Assembly (NCBI RefSeq): GCF_003182135.1
Contig: NZ_QGTL01000014.1
Span: 1-64,000, forward strand
DNA length: 64,000 nucleotides
Direction: 5' to 3'
Origin: Nocardia neocaledoniensis
Lineage (GTDB): Bacteria; Actinomycetota; Actinomycetes; Mycobacteriales; Mycobacteriaceae
The position numbers and the translations under genes are program-made. The notes beneath the pieces were generated by a model. It had not been told where the DNA came from and made no database searches. It saw only the letters and a list, made by a program, of their open reading frames with translations. This document shows positions 48,442 through 60,964 of the stretch, in pieces; within the stretch, counting starts at the first letter, position 1; the number at the start of each line of letters is the position of its first letter.

Positions 48442-48623
48442 CTCGACCTCCCGGGATACTGCCTCGCGTCGCAGACGGGTCGCCTTGCCACACAGTGCTT
48501 TCGAATGAGATTTGCGATGAGCGAATGCGTCGAGGTCTCTGACCGAGGCGCGGCACCTGGCGTCGGGGAAGTACGTCAGGGTCCGCGCCCGGGCAGAGGC
48601 CTCGCAGCACTCGCGTGCTCCGG

Positions 48624-56861: not shown

Positions 56862-57075
56862 GGCGCACTCCTCATCGACGTGAAGAAGGCCGAGGCTACT
56901 CCGTGTCGGGGCAGAATCCGCCCAGGTGGGCGCGTTCCGTGTTCGGCGCGTCGCGCACATTGTCGTCGCGATCGGCCCCGGATCGAAGCTCTGCGCTCAC
57001 GCTGATTTCTACCGTTGTGCGCGATCGCGCCTGTGCCCCATGCTGGTTCAGCTCGGGCTCGATGGCTGGGGCACA

Positions 57076-57163
57076 CCATCCAGAGCGACCGAGAGACCTG
57101 GCTCCACGACGTCGCAGCAACCCGCCCGTGACCGGGTGTGGGTGCTTCCGCCGGGTTCGATGG
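57076..57163 (+). promoter_or_regulatory. SAM-I/SAM-IV-family riboswitch
   Basis: The sequence upstream of the LLM gene shows the S-box core. P1 pairs CCATC (57076-57080) with GATGG (57159-57163). P2 pairs GCGAC (57085-57089) with GTCGC (57111-57115). The conserved GCAACC is at 57116-57121 and GGTGCTTCC at 57141-57149. The P2 loop CCTGG (57097-57101) can form the expected pseudoknot with CCGGG (57151-57155). There is no P4, which favours SAM-IV or a SAM-I/IV variant over SAM-I. The P1 3' strand touches the Shine-Dalgarno GGAGGAGG (57162-57169), so SAM would block translation. Confidence 0.8.
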
Positions 57164-57174
57164 AGGAGGTCCAC

Positions 57175-58245
57175 GTGAAATTTCTGCTGTTCACCTTGGT
57201 GACCAGGGTGCCCGATCCGCACACCGGCGCGGTCCCCGCGACCAGGGACCGGTTCCGGGAGGTCGTCGTGCAGGCGCGACTGGCCGAGGAGCTGGGCTAC
57301 GACGGGTTCGCCGTCGGCGAGCGCCACGAGGACCCGTTCCTCTCGGCCGCTCCCCCGGTGCTGCTGAGCCACCTCGCCGCCGTCACCTCGCGGATCACCC
57401 TGTTCACCGCCGTGACCACGCTGAGTCTGCTTGATCCGGTGCGCGCGTTCGAGGACTACTCGACGCTGGACAATCTCGCCGACGGGCGCCTGGAACTGAT
57501 CATCGGCAAGGGCAACGGCGCCGCGCAGGCCCGGCTCTACCACGTCACCACCGAGGACCAGTGGGACCGCAACCGCGAGGGCTACGAACTGTTCCGCGCC
57601 CTGTGGGACAGCGACGAGGTGACCTGGTCGGGCCGCTTCCGCCCACCGCTCACCGCGGCCAAGGCGCTGCCGCGGCCGTGGCAGCCGCGGATCCGGGTCT
57701 GGCACGGCAGCGCGACCAGCCGCGAATCGGTGGAACTGGCCGCCCGCCACGGTGATCCGCTGTTCTCGGCGAACGTCACCCATCCGATCGAGCCGTATGC
57801 CGAACTGGTGGAGCACTATCGGGAGCGCTGGGCCCACCACGGCCACGACCCGGCCGACGCGCTGGTCGGCGCCGGCACCGCGGGATTCCACGTCGCGCCC
57901 ACCTCGCAGCAGGCCAGGGCGGTCTACGCCCCGCTGTTCGAGGCGCGCTCGGCGCTGGCGCGCAAGCTCGGCCTGCCCCTCGTGTTCGACACCCTCGACG
58001 ACTTCGTCGCGCGCAGTTCCGCGCTGATCGGCAGCCCGCAGGAGGTGATCGACAAGGTCGGTCGCTATCACGAGCGGTTCGGGCACGAGGTGATCCACCT
58101 GTCCGCCGAGCGCGAAGGCCGCGCCGACGCCGACTACCTGGGCAGTCTCGAGCTGTTCCAGGCCGAGGCGGCGCCGGAGCTGCGCCGCCGCATTCCCAGC
58201 CGTCCCCTGGCCGCAGGCCGCGAATTCTCTGGAGTCACCCCGTGA
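57175..58245 (+). CDS. LLM-class flavin-dependent monooxygenase, first gene of ABC operon
   Basis: A 356-residue luciferase-like TIM-barrel oxygenase, probably FMN/FMNH2-dependent. It has KFLLFTLVTRVPD, the conserved AEELGYDGFAVGERH, DNLADGRLELIIGKG and GVTP at the end. GTG 57175 follows GGAGGAGG by five bases; ATG 57160 lies inside riboswitch stem P1 and has no Shine-Dalgarno. The stop overlaps the GTG of the binding-protein gene. Relatives cleave C-S bonds of sulfonates, sulfides or sulfones, and the riboswitch upstream supports a sulfur role. The substrate is not known. Confidence 0.85.
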   Translation: MKFLLFTLVTRVPDPHTGAVPATRDRFREVVVQARLAEELGYDGFAVGERHEDPFLSAAPPVLLSHLAAVTSRITLFTAVTTLSLLDPVRAFEDYSTLDNLADGRLELIIGKGNGAAQARLYHVTTEDQWDRNREGYELFRALWDSDEVTWSGRFRPPLTAAKALPRPWQPRIRVWHGSATSRESVELAARHGDPLFSANVTHPIEPYAELVEHYRERWAHHGHDPADALVGAGTAGFHVAPTSQQARAVYAPLFEARSALARKLGLPLVFDTLDDFVARSSALIGSPQEVIDKVGRYHERFGHEVIHLSAEREGRADADYLGSLELFQAEAAPELRRRIPSRPLAAGREFSGVTP

Positions 58246-59861
58246 TCGGTTCTCGTCATCGTCTCGCCGCCGTCGTCGGCGTGTTCGCCACCGCCGCCAC
58301 CGTGGTCGCGTGCGGCGGCGAGTCGGCGGGCCCGGGTGGGCAGGCCGGTCCGCCGCAGCCGGGTGGCACGCTGCGGTACGGCCTCTCGCAGGCGCCCTCG
58401 TGCTCGGATCCGGCGCAGGCCGGGTCGAACCAGTCCATCTATGTCGCCCGCCAGATCGTGGACTCGCTCACCGATCAGGATCCGAAGACCGGCGCGATCA
58501 CGCCGTGGCTGGCCCGGAGCTGGGAGGTCAGTCCCGACGCCAAGGTCTTCACCTTCCGGCTCGCCGACGGGGTGACCTTCAGCGACGGCACGCCGCTCAC
58601 CGCCGATTCGGTGCGCGACACCTTCGACGCGGTCGTCCGGCTCGGCGGTGCGAAGGCTCCGCTGGGCACGAGCTACCTCACCAACTACGTCGGCACGACC
58701 GCGGTCGACAAGCTCACCGCCCGTGTCGAATTCAGCCAGCCGAACGCCCAGTTCCTGCAGGCGTCCTCGACGCCGCAGCTCGGCATCCTGGGGCAGGCTA
58801 CCAACGCGAAACCGGCCGAGGCCAGGTGCGCGGGCGACAACGTCGGCAGCGGCCCCTTCACCTACGCCGAGTACAAGCAGGACGTCTCCGTGGCGCTGGC
58901 CAAGCGTGCCGGATACCACTGGGGCTCGGACGTTTTCGGGCACGAGGGCGAGGCGTACCTGGACCGGATCGAGTTCACCGTGGTCCCCGAATCCGGGGTG
59001 CGCACCGGCAGCCTGGTCTCCGGCCAGCTCGACGCCATCAGCGACGCGCTGCCCCAGGATGCCCCGCAGATCGAGGCGGTCGGCGGCCGGGTGCTCTCCA
59101 CGTCCAATCCCGGCACGCCGTTCGGCCTGCACACCAATGTGACGCGCGGTCCGCTGCGCGATCCCGCGGTGCGTCAGGCGCTGCTGCCCGCGCTCGACCG
59201 GCAGCAGCTCGTCGACACCGTGCTCGGCCCGCAGTTCAAGATCGCGACCTCGACGCTGGCCTCGGCGACGCCCGCCTACACCGATCTCTCGGCGCGCCTG
59301 CCCTACGACCCGGCGAAGGCGAAGTCGATCCTCGACCAGGCGGGCTGGACGCCCGGCCCCGACGGTATCCGCGCGAAGAACGGTGAGCGACTGAGCTTCT
59401 CGGTCACCTTCAGCCAGGTGTTCGCGGGCAATCAGGCGATCCTGGAGCTGGTGCAGCAGCAGCTGCGGCAGGTGGGCGTCGAGCTGCGGCTCGACCTGGT
59501 GTCGCTGCCGGAGTGGACCGCCAAGATGAACGGCAAGGACTACGACTCCACCTACGGCAACTCCACCCGCGCCGACGGCGACATCCTGCGCACCTCCTTC
59601 GCCGTCACCGGCCGCAATCTCAATGCGCGCGGCCCGATCCCGGCGCTGGACGAGACCCTGGACAAGCAGCTCGCCACCAACGACCCGGCGGCGCGGGCGG
59701 AGTTGATCAAGACGGCGCAACAGCAGATCCTCGACAACGGCCTCTACGTCCCGACCATCGAGCTGTCGCAGGCGATCGGCGCGGCGGCGGGCACCCAGGA
59801 CCTGAAGTTCGAGGCCTCGGCCCGGCTGCAGTTCTTCGACACCTGGCTGAGCGGACGCTGA
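58242..59861 (+). CDS. ABC transporter substrate-binding lipoprotein (peptide/nickel type)
   Basis: A 539-residue binding protein of the SBP family 5 (DppA/OppA/NikA). A signal sequence ends in the lipobox VVAC (Cys24), followed by a Gly/Pro linker. The family 5 pattern is visible in WLARSWEVSPDAKVFTFRLA, DGVTFSDGTPLTADSV and KAKSILDQAGWTPGPDG. Ligand choice (peptides, nickel, opines, sulfur compounds) cannot be read from sequence. GTG 58242 overlaps the LLM stop. It delivers substrate to the two permeases encoded next. Confidence 0.92.
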   Translation: MIGSRHRLAAVVGVFATAATVVACGGESAGPGGQAGPPQPGGTLRYGLSQAPSCSDPAQAGSNQSIYVARQIVDSLTDQDPKTGAITPWLARSWEVSPDAKVFTFRLADGVTFSDGTPLTADSVRDTFDAVVRLGGAKAPLGTSYLTNYVGTTAVDKLTARVEFSQPNAQFLQASSTPQLGILGQATNAKPAEARCAGDNVGSGPFTYAEYKQDVSVALAKRAGYHWGSDVFGHEGEAYLDRIEFTVVPESGVRTGSLVSGQLDAISDALPQDAPQIEAVGGRVLSTSNPGTPFGLHTNVTRGPLRDPAVRQALLPALDRQQLVDTVLGPQFKIATSTLASATPAYTDLSARLPYDPAKAKSILDQAGWTPGPDGIRAKNGERLSFSVTFSQVFAGNQAILELVQQQLRQVGVELRLDLVSLPEWTAKMNGKDYDSTYGNSTRADGDILRTSFAVTGRNLNARGPIPALDETLDKQLATNDPAARAELIKTAQQQILDNGLYVPTIELSQAIGAAAGTQDLKFEASARLQFFDTWLSGR

Positions 59862-59863
59862 TC

Positions 59864-60964
59864 ATGGTCCGCTACGTGGGTTCGCGTCTGCTGCAGGCGC
59901 TCTGGGTGGTCTGGGCGGCGTTCACCGTCTCGTTCGTCGTGCTGTACCTGCTGCCCGCCGACCCGGTCTCGATGGCCGCCGACGGCGCGGGCACCGGCAC
60001 GCCGGTCGACAGGGCGGCCATCGCGGAGATGCAGGCCCGCTACGGGCTGGACAAGCCGCTGTGGGAGCAGTATTTGAGCGCGCTCGGCAACGCGGTGACC
60101 GGTGATCTCGGCCGGTCGATCAGCACCGGGCAGCCGGTGACCGAGGCGATCGGCGACGCGATCCCCGCCACCCTCGGGCTGGCCGGTCTCGCCCTGCTGT
60201 TCGCGGTCGCGGGCGGCACCGCGATCGCCTTCGCCGCCACCTACACCCGGCGCGCGTGGCTGCGCAACACCCTCGCCGCGCTGCCGCCGCTGGGCGTCTC
60301 GGTGCCGACGTTCTGGACGGGTCTGCTGCTGTTGCAGCTGTTCTCGTTCCGGCTGCACTGGTTCCCCGCGTTCGGCGGCACCGGGTTGCGCGGCACGCTG
60401 CTGCCCGCGCTGACGCTGGCGCTGCCGATCGGCGCGGTCATCGCCCAGGTGCTCGCGGCCGGGTTGGCGCAGACGTGGCGGCAGCCGTTCACCGAGGTGG
60501 CGCTGGCCAAGGGCGGCTCGCGGTGGTGGGTGCAGCGCCGCCACGTCGCCCGGCTGGCGAGTGTGCCCGCGTTCACCATCGCCGGGGTGCTCGCCGGCAC
60601 CATGCTGGCGGGCTCGGTGGTGGTGGAGTCGGTGTTCGCCAGGGCCGGTGTCGGGCGGTTGACCCAGACCGCGGTGCTCAACCAGGACATTCCGGTGGTG
60701 CAGGGCGTGGTGCTGCTGTCGGCGCTGATCTTCGTGCTCGTGAATCTGGCCGTCGACCTGATCTATCCGCTGATCGACCCGCGCATCGCGGGGGTCGGCA
60801 CGACGCGCGCCACGACGACCGGCGGTGACGACACGCGGACCGGCGCACCGGCGACCGCCGCGACGACACCGGCCTCGGCCGGACCCGAGCCGGTGAGCGC
60901 CGTGGCCGTGAGTGGGCAGCCGAGCGGCGCGACCCGCGATTCCGAAGGGGTACAGCATGGTTGA
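59864..60964 (+). CDS. ABC transporter permease (DppB-type)
   Basis: A 366-residue inner-membrane permease of the peptide/nickel family. The N-terminal helix is VGSRLLQALWVVWAAFTVSF, then the typical DPVSM and ARYGLDKPLWEQYLSAL periplasmic segment, with about five further helices and the EAA-like VVESVFARAGVGRL loop. A C-terminal tail of about 50 residues rich in Thr, Ala and Gly extends beyond the last helix, which is longer than usual. It overlaps the following permease gene by eight bases. Confidence 0.93.
   Translation: MVRYVGSRLLQALWVVWAAFTVSFVVLYLLPADPVSMAADGAGTGTPVDRAAIAEMQARYGLDKPLWEQYLSALGNAVTGDLGRSISTGQPVTEAIGDAIPATLGLAGLALLFAVAGGTAIAFAATYTRRAWLRNTLAALPPLGVSVPTFWTGLLLLQLFSFRLHWFPAFGGTGLRGTLLPALTLALPIGAVIAQVLAAGLAQTWRQPFTEVALAKGGSRWWVQRRHVARLASVPAFTIAGVLAGTMLAGSVVVESVFARAGVGRLTQTAVLNQDIPVVQGVVLLSALIFVLVNLAVDLIYPLIDPRIAGVGTTRATTTGGDDTRTGAPATAATTPASAGPEPVSAVAVSGQPSGATRDSEGVQHG

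What the first reader, a model, noticed from the sequence alone, without database searches (positions are those of the whole stretch)
57076..57163. SAM riboswitch of unusual compact type directly on the Shine-Dalgarno of an LLM/ABC operon
All S-box core elements can be drawn: P1, P2, GCAACC, GGTGC and a P2-loop pseudoknot (CCTGG with CCGGG). There is no P4 hairpin, and P1 ends on the start of GGAGGAGG. This suggests direct translational blocking by SAM in a GC-rich actinobacterium, and either SAM-IV or a SAM-I/IV variant. I cannot decide the class.
Basis: partly seen in the sequence, partly recalled or inferred. Interest (0 to 1): 0.8.

Follow-up and report, generated by a model that had tools for sequence, protein, structure and literature searches.

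The report
P4-less SAM-I riboswitch in Nocardia
An RNA switch that senses the sulfur metabolite S-adenosylmethionine sits against the ribosome-binding site of a probable sulfur-scavenging operon in Nocardia; it belongs to a known kind of switch, in a slimmed-down form found across many actinobacteria.

Summary
The element is real. Window 57073-57166 (+) matches Rfam SAM (RF00162), 52.1 bits, cut-off 44.4. P1, kink-turned P2, P3, the GCAACC/GGTGC core and the P2-loop pseudoknot are present; P4 is absent; P1 overlaps the first two bases of GGAGGAGG. SAM-IV and SAM-I/IV are not supported. It is a SAM-I aptamer without P4, probably a translational OFF switch on an LLM-monooxygenase / family-5 ABC operon.

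RF00162 matches in 72 of 118 Nocardia genomes; the P4-less form also lies in many other actinobacteria. 115 of 140 collected places end in exactly GATGGAGG, and the structure covaries. [quoted passage not shown] I found no account of the P4-less subtype in the texts searched, nor of its frequent coupling to a leader-peptide ORF (43 of 140 places), which the window lacks. The window has a second GGAGG register beyond P1, which weakens strict occlusion. Binding and regulation are untested.

The parts
57073..57166 (+). SAM-I (S-box) aptamer without P4
   Evidence: Rfam RF00162, 52.1 bits, gathering 44.4; clade model R1, 100.6 bits (the window is a member of the model)
57076..57080 (+). P1 5' strand CCATC, pairs with 57159-57163
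   Evidence: pair columns 99.5% paired in 41 rows, 2 of 5 pairs changed on both sides
57085..57115 (+). P2: P2a 57085-57089/57111-57115, kink-turn loops 57090-57092 and 57105-57110, P2b 57093-57095/57102-57104
   Evidence: alignment; P2a 4 of 5 and P2b 1 of 3 pairs changed on both sides, 100% paired
57097..57101 (+). P2-loop strand of the pseudoknot, CCTGG
   Evidence: pairs with 57151-57155; pseudoknot 99.0% paired, 3 of 5 pairs changed on both sides
57116..57146 (+). P3 with GCAACC and GGTGC
   Evidence: GCAACC and GGTGC columns invariant in 41 rows
57150..57158 (+). J3/1: pseudoknot strand CCGGG 57151-57155 and single pair G57150-C57158; replaces J3/4-P4-J4/1
   Evidence: the single pair is G-C in all 41 rows of A1; at the same places in other actinobacterial SAM-I elements, by eye, mostly U-A, with C-G in L158 and L180
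57159..57163 (+). P1 3' strand GATGG; its last two G belong to the Shine-Dalgarno tract
57162..57169 (+). Shine-Dalgarno tract GGAGGAGG; GGAGG readable at 57162-57166 and at 57165-57169
   Evidence: among 118 rows ending GATGGAGG only the window has this repeat; L263 of the wider set has it too
57175..58245 (+). LLM-class (Bac_luciferase) flavin monooxygenase, GTG start
   Evidence: Pfam PF00296, E 1.8e-72
58242..59861 (+). ABC substrate-binding protein, family 5
   Evidence: Pfam PF00496, E 9.7e-75
59864..60964 (+). ABC permease 1 (start chosen from the reading frame)
   Evidence: Pfam PF00528 and PF19300
60957..61931 (+). ABC permease 2
   Evidence: Pfam PF00528
61928..63664 (+). double ABC ATPase, oligopeptide/dipeptide type (start chosen from the reading frame)
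   Evidence: Pfam PF00005 two stretches, PF08352
63661..63999 (+). second LLM-class protein, runs off the window
   Evidence: Pfam PF00296, E 1.8e-8 on the part present

Best explanation
This is a SAM-I (S-box) aptamer that has lost the P4 hairpin and has no separate expression platform. When SAM is plentiful it binds between P1 and P3 and stabilises P1. P1's 3' strand (GATGG) then holds the first two bases of the Shine-Dalgarno tract and sets the folded aptamer against the rest, so the 30S subunit cannot load and the LLM monooxygenase is not made; the overlapping ABC genes would follow by translational coupling or polarity. When SAM, and so methionine, runs low, P1 opens, the tract is free, and an import-and-oxidation system, probably for an organic sulfur source, is made. 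Shown here: sequence, covarying structure, conservation of the P1/SD fusion, gene content. Inferred: SAM binding, the direction of control, the occlusion step, and the sulfur role of the operon.
For: RF00162 over its gathering score, with model alignment over P1-P3. Covariation in P1, P2 and the pseudoknot across 41 rows. Of the nucleotides named as highly conserved in SAM-I (PMC3764141, passages; T. tengcongensis numbering and mapping recalled, done by eye), most are kept, among them G11, A12, G19, A20, G35, A36, C44, A45, U57, G58. The single pair that Barrick and Breaker predicted from the base before the pseudoknot strand to the base before P1's 3' strand (PMC2258182, passages) is present as G57150-C57158. 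GATGGAGG ends 72 of 73 Nocardia elements and 115 of 140 places. In 87 rows (85 places) that end so and have a start codon found 4-13 nt after GGAGG, only 3 have another SD-like tetramer before the start. No intrinsic terminator was found in 56880-57300. [quoted passage not shown] A family-5 binding-protein orthologue lies on the same strand within 8 kb downstream of 60 of 71 Nocardia elements tested.
Against: No binding or expression data. In this copy GGAGG is also readable at 57165-57169, outside the five P1 pairs and 5 nt before the GTG, so P1 need not cover the working SD; the window is one of the 3 exceptions among those 87 rows. P1 is only five contiguous pairs and is nearly constant where fused to the SD, so most of its covariation comes from other members. 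Folding without ligand or pseudoknot gives no sign of a switch: mean unpaired probability of GGAGG is 0.37 free and 0.34 with P1 enforced over 98 distinct elements. By the recalled mapping, two positions listed as highly conserved in SAM-I differ: A61 is U57147 and U4 is C57076. 25 Nocardia genomes carry the binding protein at 63% or more but had no riboswitch in the RF00162 search.
Confidence: 0.75

Rival explanations
1. It is a SAM-IV or SAM-I/IV riboswitch.
For: Like SAM-IV it lacks P4 and has a 5-base first pseudoknot (PMC6890682); the genome carries SAM-IV elements.
Against: The SAM-IV search of the own genome found three other sites and not this one; SAM-I-IV gave no match at E<=10. Only 11 nt separate the last P1 pair from the start codon, leaving no place for P5 or the 3' strand of PK-2 outside the coding sequence. 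Kink-turn loops of 3 and 6 nt fit the SAM-I model; SAM-IV has a 4-nt turn and SAM-I/IV an undivided P2 without PK-1 (PMC2864571, passages). The SAM-IV elements of this genome read GGTGC-TCCGGGTGA and look quite different there.
Confidence: 0.03
2. It is a SAM aptamer, but the output is not direct SD occlusion: it acts on transcription (for example Rho-dependent termination in untranslated mRNA) or on mRNA stability, and the SD adjacency is only one part.
For: The second GGAGG register in the window lies outside P1. Folding shows no clear SD release. In some relatives of other groups a P4-less element is followed, by eye, by a possible terminator-like repeat instead of an SD (L176, L178; not tested).
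Against: No intrinsic terminator by pattern scan. The constant GGAGG at P1 in 115 of 140 places, with the start codon 4-13 nt on where one was found, is hard to explain otherwise.
Confidence: 0.15
3. It is a former SAM switch that no longer responds here, or senses a different ligand.
For: A61 and U4 differ in the window (recalled mapping). Decayed remnants exist in two other Nocardia genomes (L205, L209).
Against: The other conserved core positions are kept. U61 is common among the collected elements (TTCCG or TTCTG joints), so it is not private decay. The window scores 100.6 bits with the clade model, of which it is a member.
Confidence: 0.07

Closest known systems
SAM-I (S-box) riboswitch, Rfam RF00162
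   Same: P1, kink-turned P2, P2-loop/J3 pseudoknot at the same distance from GGTGC (recalled numbering), P3 with GCAACC/GGTGC, the single pair closing the pseudoknot onto P1; RBS in P1's 3' strand as described for SAM-I (PMC2258182, passages)
   Different: no P4 hairpin; A61 replaced by U in the window; J3/4-P4-J4/1 shrunk to 13 nt between GGTGC and P1
SAM-IV riboswitch, Rfam RF00634
   Same: lacks P4, 5-base PK-1, same SAM core; also present in this genome
   Different: SAM-IV has PK-2 and P5 after P1 and a 4-nt turn in P2 (PMC6890682); absent here
SAM-I/IV variant, Rfam RF01725
   Same: same SAM core
   Different: SAM-I/IV has an undivided P2, a P4 and no PK-1 (PMC6890682); here P2 is kink-turned, P4 absent, PK-1 present
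SAM-I of Xanthomonas campestris met operon (PMC7270179, passages)
   Same: SAM-I that acts mainly on translation
   Different: uses a separate expression platform with hairpins P5-P7; here there is none

Membership tests
SAM-I (RF00162) | covariance model score at or above the gathering score | tested here: met
   52.1 against 44.4 bits
SAM-I (RF00162) | P2 divided by a kink-turn (3- and 6-nt loops, tandem G-A) | tested here: met
   CGA and CACGAC loops aligned to the model loops
SAM-I (RF00162) | P2-loop pseudoknot with J3/4 | tested here: met
   CCTGG/CCGGG; 99.0% paired, 3 of 5 pairs changed on both sides
SAM-I (RF00162) | conserved nucleotides of J1/2, P2 and P3 (G11, A12, G19, A20, G35, A36, G43, C44, A45, C47, G56, U57, G58, C59) | tested here: met
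   positions listed in PMC3764141 (passages), mapped by recalled numbering
SAM-I (RF00162) | A61 in J3/4 and U4 in P1 | tested here: not met
   U57147 and C57076 by the recalled mapping; A61 is present in many relatives
SAM-I (RF00162) | P4 hairpin between P3 and P1 (part of the Rfam consensus; I file the element as a P4-less variant, not as a canonical member) | tested here: not met
   3 bases between the pseudoknot strand and P1; local end in the alignment. Also missing in the collected family rows and in the 9 dropped ones
SAM-I (RF00162) | binds SAM | not testable with these tools
   needs probing or calorimetry
SAM-IV (RF00634) | model hit | tested here: not met
   3 sites in the own genome, none here (E<=0.001)
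SAM-IV (RF00634) | PK-2 and P5 downstream of P1 | tested here: not met
   SD and start codon follow P1 at once
SAM-I/IV (RF01725) | model hit | tested here: not met
   no match at E<=10 in the own genome (150 of 159 candidates scored)
SAM-I/IV (RF01725) | P2 without internal loop | tested here: not met
   P2 has kink-turn loops; feature taken from PMC2864571 (passages)

The most novel reading that the evidence does not exclude
Actinobacteria carry a stable, class-wide P4-less subtype of SAM-I, a minimal form of the SAM clan with neither P4 nor PK-2/P5, whose P1 3' strand is itself the Shine-Dalgarno sequence. In about a third of the places collected in the family of Nocardia that SD serves a 24-51 aa leader ORF with an RRHVDLCR-type motif and Cys near its end. 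SAM sensing would thus gate translation of a cysteine-responsive attenuator peptide, giving two-input control (SAM and Cys-tRNA) of sulfur-source uptake operons. The window would be the one-input form, with the leader ORF missing.
Probability: 0.3. Interest if true: 0.65.

Novelty: new variant of a known kind. Interest (0 to 1): 0.4.

Why it matters
P4 is part of the SAM-I consensus, so a natural, widespread SAM-I without it shows what the core needs and gives a small construct for testing. It also supplies a clear set of riboswitches without a separate expression platform, in which aptamer and ribosome-binding site are one piece. If the leader-peptide arrangement works as it looks, SAM and cysteine status are read in series on one leader. 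For the window itself the finding mainly links an LLM/ABC operon of unknown substrate to methionine/SAM supply.

Tried and rejected
SAM-IV and SAM-I/IV: rejected.

Free-energy folding as support: gave none (z 0.62). SD accessibility with and without P1: no difference on average (0.37 against 0.34, 98 distinct elements), so no support for or against.

Upstream 9-nt inverted repeat 57032-57040/57067-57075 as an anti-P1 element: rejected, because the relatives with the same operon that I printed lack it (by eye).

Promoter and terminator pattern scan: nothing found, which says little in a GC-rich genome.

Missed riboswitch in Nocardia genomes with the binding protein but without a hit: I fetched 20 regions from 19 of the 25 genomes and scanned them with R1, filters off. 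Two hits are clear (a decayed copy in L205; part of one in L209, which lies at that genome's own hit place and not upstream of its operon); six more are at E 0.11-0.9. So it is absent or decayed in most of those looked at. A motif search for leader peptides in the same regions found none.

Literature: the 10 searches used found no text that I could see to describe a P4-less SAM-I or a SAM riboswitch in front of a Cys leader peptide. Beyond the listings I saw passages of PMC2258182, PMC2864571, PMC3764141, PMC7270179, PMC1262725, PMC3766115 and PMC3890552, and parts 1-2 of 4 of PMC6890682. PMC1262725 (2005) reports no conserved RNA structure upstream of methionine operons in the Actinobacteria it studied, Nocardia farcinica included. 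The library lacks most subscription papers; the SAM-IV discovery paper is not held, and figures are not held.

Rows dropped or partial: the 143 rows are all 73 Nocardia matches plus a selection of the family matches, whose own list was cut off. In the family set, 9 of 38 fetched loci (L108, L114, L118, L119, L120, L123, L125, L127, L138) did not fit my regular expression; read by hand they are P4-less too. Three chance fits of the expression were removed by hand (L109, L119, L122). The 143 rows hold 3 places twice (L106/L135, L100/L122b, L102/L128), giving 140. A1 holds 41 of 121 distinct rows, chosen for diversity, with elements over 104 nt left out and one further chosen row (L075) not passed on. 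The co-location count used 71 of 73 Nocardia elements, because two genomes were not in that draw. Searches of more than 40 genomes used stricter filters that lose weak matches.

Full report
What is there. The window reads CCATC CAGA GCGAC CGA GAG A CCTGG CTC CACGAC GTCGC A GCAACC ... GGTGC TTCCG CCGGG TTC GATGG AGGAGG TCCAC GTG from 57076 to 57177. Rfam SAM (RF00162) matches 57073-57166 (+) with 52.1 bits against a gathering score of 44.4, E 4.1e-9 for the window and 1.1e-10 for the 7.3-Mb genome, where it is the only match reported. The alignment runs through P1, P2 with 3- and 6-nt kink-turn loops, P3, and P1 again; P4 is passed over by a local end.

Is it conserved structure? RF00162 matches in 72 of 118 genomes of the genus, 71 of them over the cut-off. 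In the family it matches in 114 of 401 genomes, in 14 of 31 genera. From these I collected 143 rows at 140 places: all 73 Nocardia matches and a selection of the rest. On an alignment of 41 diverse ones (A1) the structure pairs in 98.9% of cells; 11 of 26 pairs have changes on both sides (shuffled mean 4.0; slid controls 1-4), including 3 of 5 pseudoknot pairs, 5 of 8 P2 pairs and 2 of 5 P1 pairs. Examples of pseudoknot partners are CCTGG with CCAGG or CCGGG, TCCGG with CCGGA, CTTGG with CCAAG, and CAAG with CTTG. Against it, the middle pseudoknot pair fails in 2 of the 41 rows: C-A in L093 (and its near copy L094) and U-C in L013.

Which class? The SAM-IV search gave three other places in this genome and none here; the SAM-I-IV search gave none at E<=10. 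From PMC6890682 (parts 1 and 2 of 4 read): SAM-IV lacks P4 but has PK-2 and P5 and a 4-nt turn; SAM-I/IV has an undivided P2, a P4 and no PK-1. From PMC2864571 (passages): SAM-I/IV variants lack the internal loop of P2. The window has a kink-turned P2, PK-1, and only 11 nt, mostly SD, between P1 and the start codon. It is therefore SAM-I in core and kink-turn, and lacks P4. The distance GGTGC to pseudoknot strand is 5 nt, as in T. tengcongensis SAM-I (numbering recalled). The base before that strand (G57150) pairs with the base before P1's 3' strand (C57158), the long-range pair that Barrick and Breaker predicted for SAM-I (PMC2258182, passages). It is G-C in all 41 rows of A1; in other actinobacterial SAM-I elements it is, by eye, mostly U-A, with C-G in L158 and L180. 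Two positions listed as highly conserved in SAM-I differ in the window by my recalled mapping: A61 is U and U4 is C.

How common is P4-lessness? GGTGC and GATG are 12-14 nt apart in 142 of 143 rows; the exception, L071, is a parsing slip, since its 14-nt joint contains GGTGC. The nine loci that my pattern dropped are P4-less too. In the whole phylum RF00162 matches in 199 of 396 genomes. I printed 35 of those elements, the best-scoring ones and some picked for shortness: by eye at least eight lack P4 (L175-L181, L183), and most others have a hairpin there. The 80 fetched loci hold 82 sites, 80 of them with the CCATC strand in the expected setting, in Nocardia, Rhodococcus, Cellulomonas, Pseudonocardia, Amycolatopsis, Lentzea, Kineococcus, Actinomyces, Micrococcus and others, plus metagenome bins named Acidimicrobiia and Solirubrobacterales.

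The Shine-Dalgarno link. 72 of 73 Nocardia elements and 115 of 140 places end in exactly GATGGAGG. GGAGG occurs at a random upstream position of the same loci in 10 of 7150 draws. In the 87 rows (85 places) that end so and have a start codon opening a gene or leader ORF, the codon is 4-13 nt on, and only 3 have any other SD-like tetramer before it. One of those three is the window: among the 118 rows ending GATGGAGG it alone has GGAGGAGG, though L263, a Nocardia record of the wider set, has it too. Hence in the family the SD is P1's own 3' end, while in the window a second GGAGG (57165-57169) lies just outside P1. Direct occlusion is the best reading for the subtype and a slightly weaker one for this copy. 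[quoted passage not shown] The mechanism is therefore not new.

What it controls. Downstream lie an LLM-class monooxygenase, a family-5 binding protein, two permeases, a double ATPase and a second LLM protein, with overlapping or nearly touching ends. The LLM protein is closest to TIGR04036 and TIGR03858 but below their cut-offs. An orthologue of the binding protein lies on the same strand within 8 kb downstream of 60 of 71 Nocardia elements. Other first genes seen are a permease followed by an ATPase and a family-3 binding protein, a GNAT protein, another LLM protein, and, in a 2.4-Mb genome, MTHFR (seven representatives scanned). This points to sulfur-source uptake and methionine supply; the substrate is unknown. 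25 Nocardia genomes have the binding protein at 63% or more but no element in the RF00162 search. A scan of regions from 19 of them found a decayed copy in L205 that keeps P2, pseudoknot and SD but has lost GCAACC, and a fragment in L209; six further hits are at E 0.11 or weaker.

A lead beyond the window. In 43 of 140 places the SD fused to P1 serves not the enzyme gene but a short ORF whose peptide carries an H-[VIL]-D motif and, as a rule, Cys near the end; 52 open a gene directly and 45 are unclear. 29 of the 40 distinct peptides were scanned, and 27 of those 29 match NCBIfam NF042934 'putative leader peptide' at E<=0.01; of five tested singly, four exceed its cut-off. In the wider set 17 of 82 sites have such a leader, by a looser pattern; that set overlaps the family rows. 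A SAM switch on the SD of a Cys attenuator peptide would be two-input control. I found no paper on it in the searches named in Tried and rejected. It does not apply to the window, whose GTG opens the LLM gene.

Verdict. The P4-less, SD-fused subtype seems to be an undescribed variant of a known kind. SAM binding and regulation remain to be measured.

Noticed in passing
window 48513-48618 (-): Match to Rfam mraW RNA (RF01746), 68 bits against 50.
   Followed up: no
L020, L047, L050-L057, L066, L067, L074, L076 and many of L098-L144: Short Cys-containing leader ORFs (RRHVDLCR type, NF042934) start on the SD that is fused to the riboswitch P1.
   Followed up: partly
L205:1212-1302 (-), L209:914-975 (+): Decayed copies of the riboswitch in two Nocardia genomes; L205 keeps P2, pseudoknot and SD but lacks GCAACC.
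   Followed up: partly
L002 (G003:C75:66092-69181): A second P4-less type without the SD fusion (GGTGC-TAATGCCAG..., ending GATGAACC) stands back to back with a SAM-IV element about 160 bp away and precedes a 2OG-Fe(II) oxygenase-like gene; the RNAs of L080-L086 are of the same type.
   Followed up: partly
G000:C18:96544-96658, G000:C3:189720-189830, G000:C7:821-937 (L195-L197): Three SAM-IV elements in the same genome.
   Followed up: no
window 57032-57040 and 57067-57075: Perfect 9-nt inverted repeat TGTGCCCCA/TGGGGCACA just upstream of P1, not seen in the relatives printed.
   Followed up: yes
window about 57005-57050 and the same place in L006-L016: Conserved upstream block (TTTCTACCGTTGTG ... 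CATGCTGATTC) shared, by eye, by several Nocardia loci; possible promoter or operator.
   Followed up: no
L202:2858-2925 (+): Match to Rfam ASdes sRNA (RF01781), 70.1 bits, in a Nocardia region upstream of the binding-protein orthologue.
   Followed up: no
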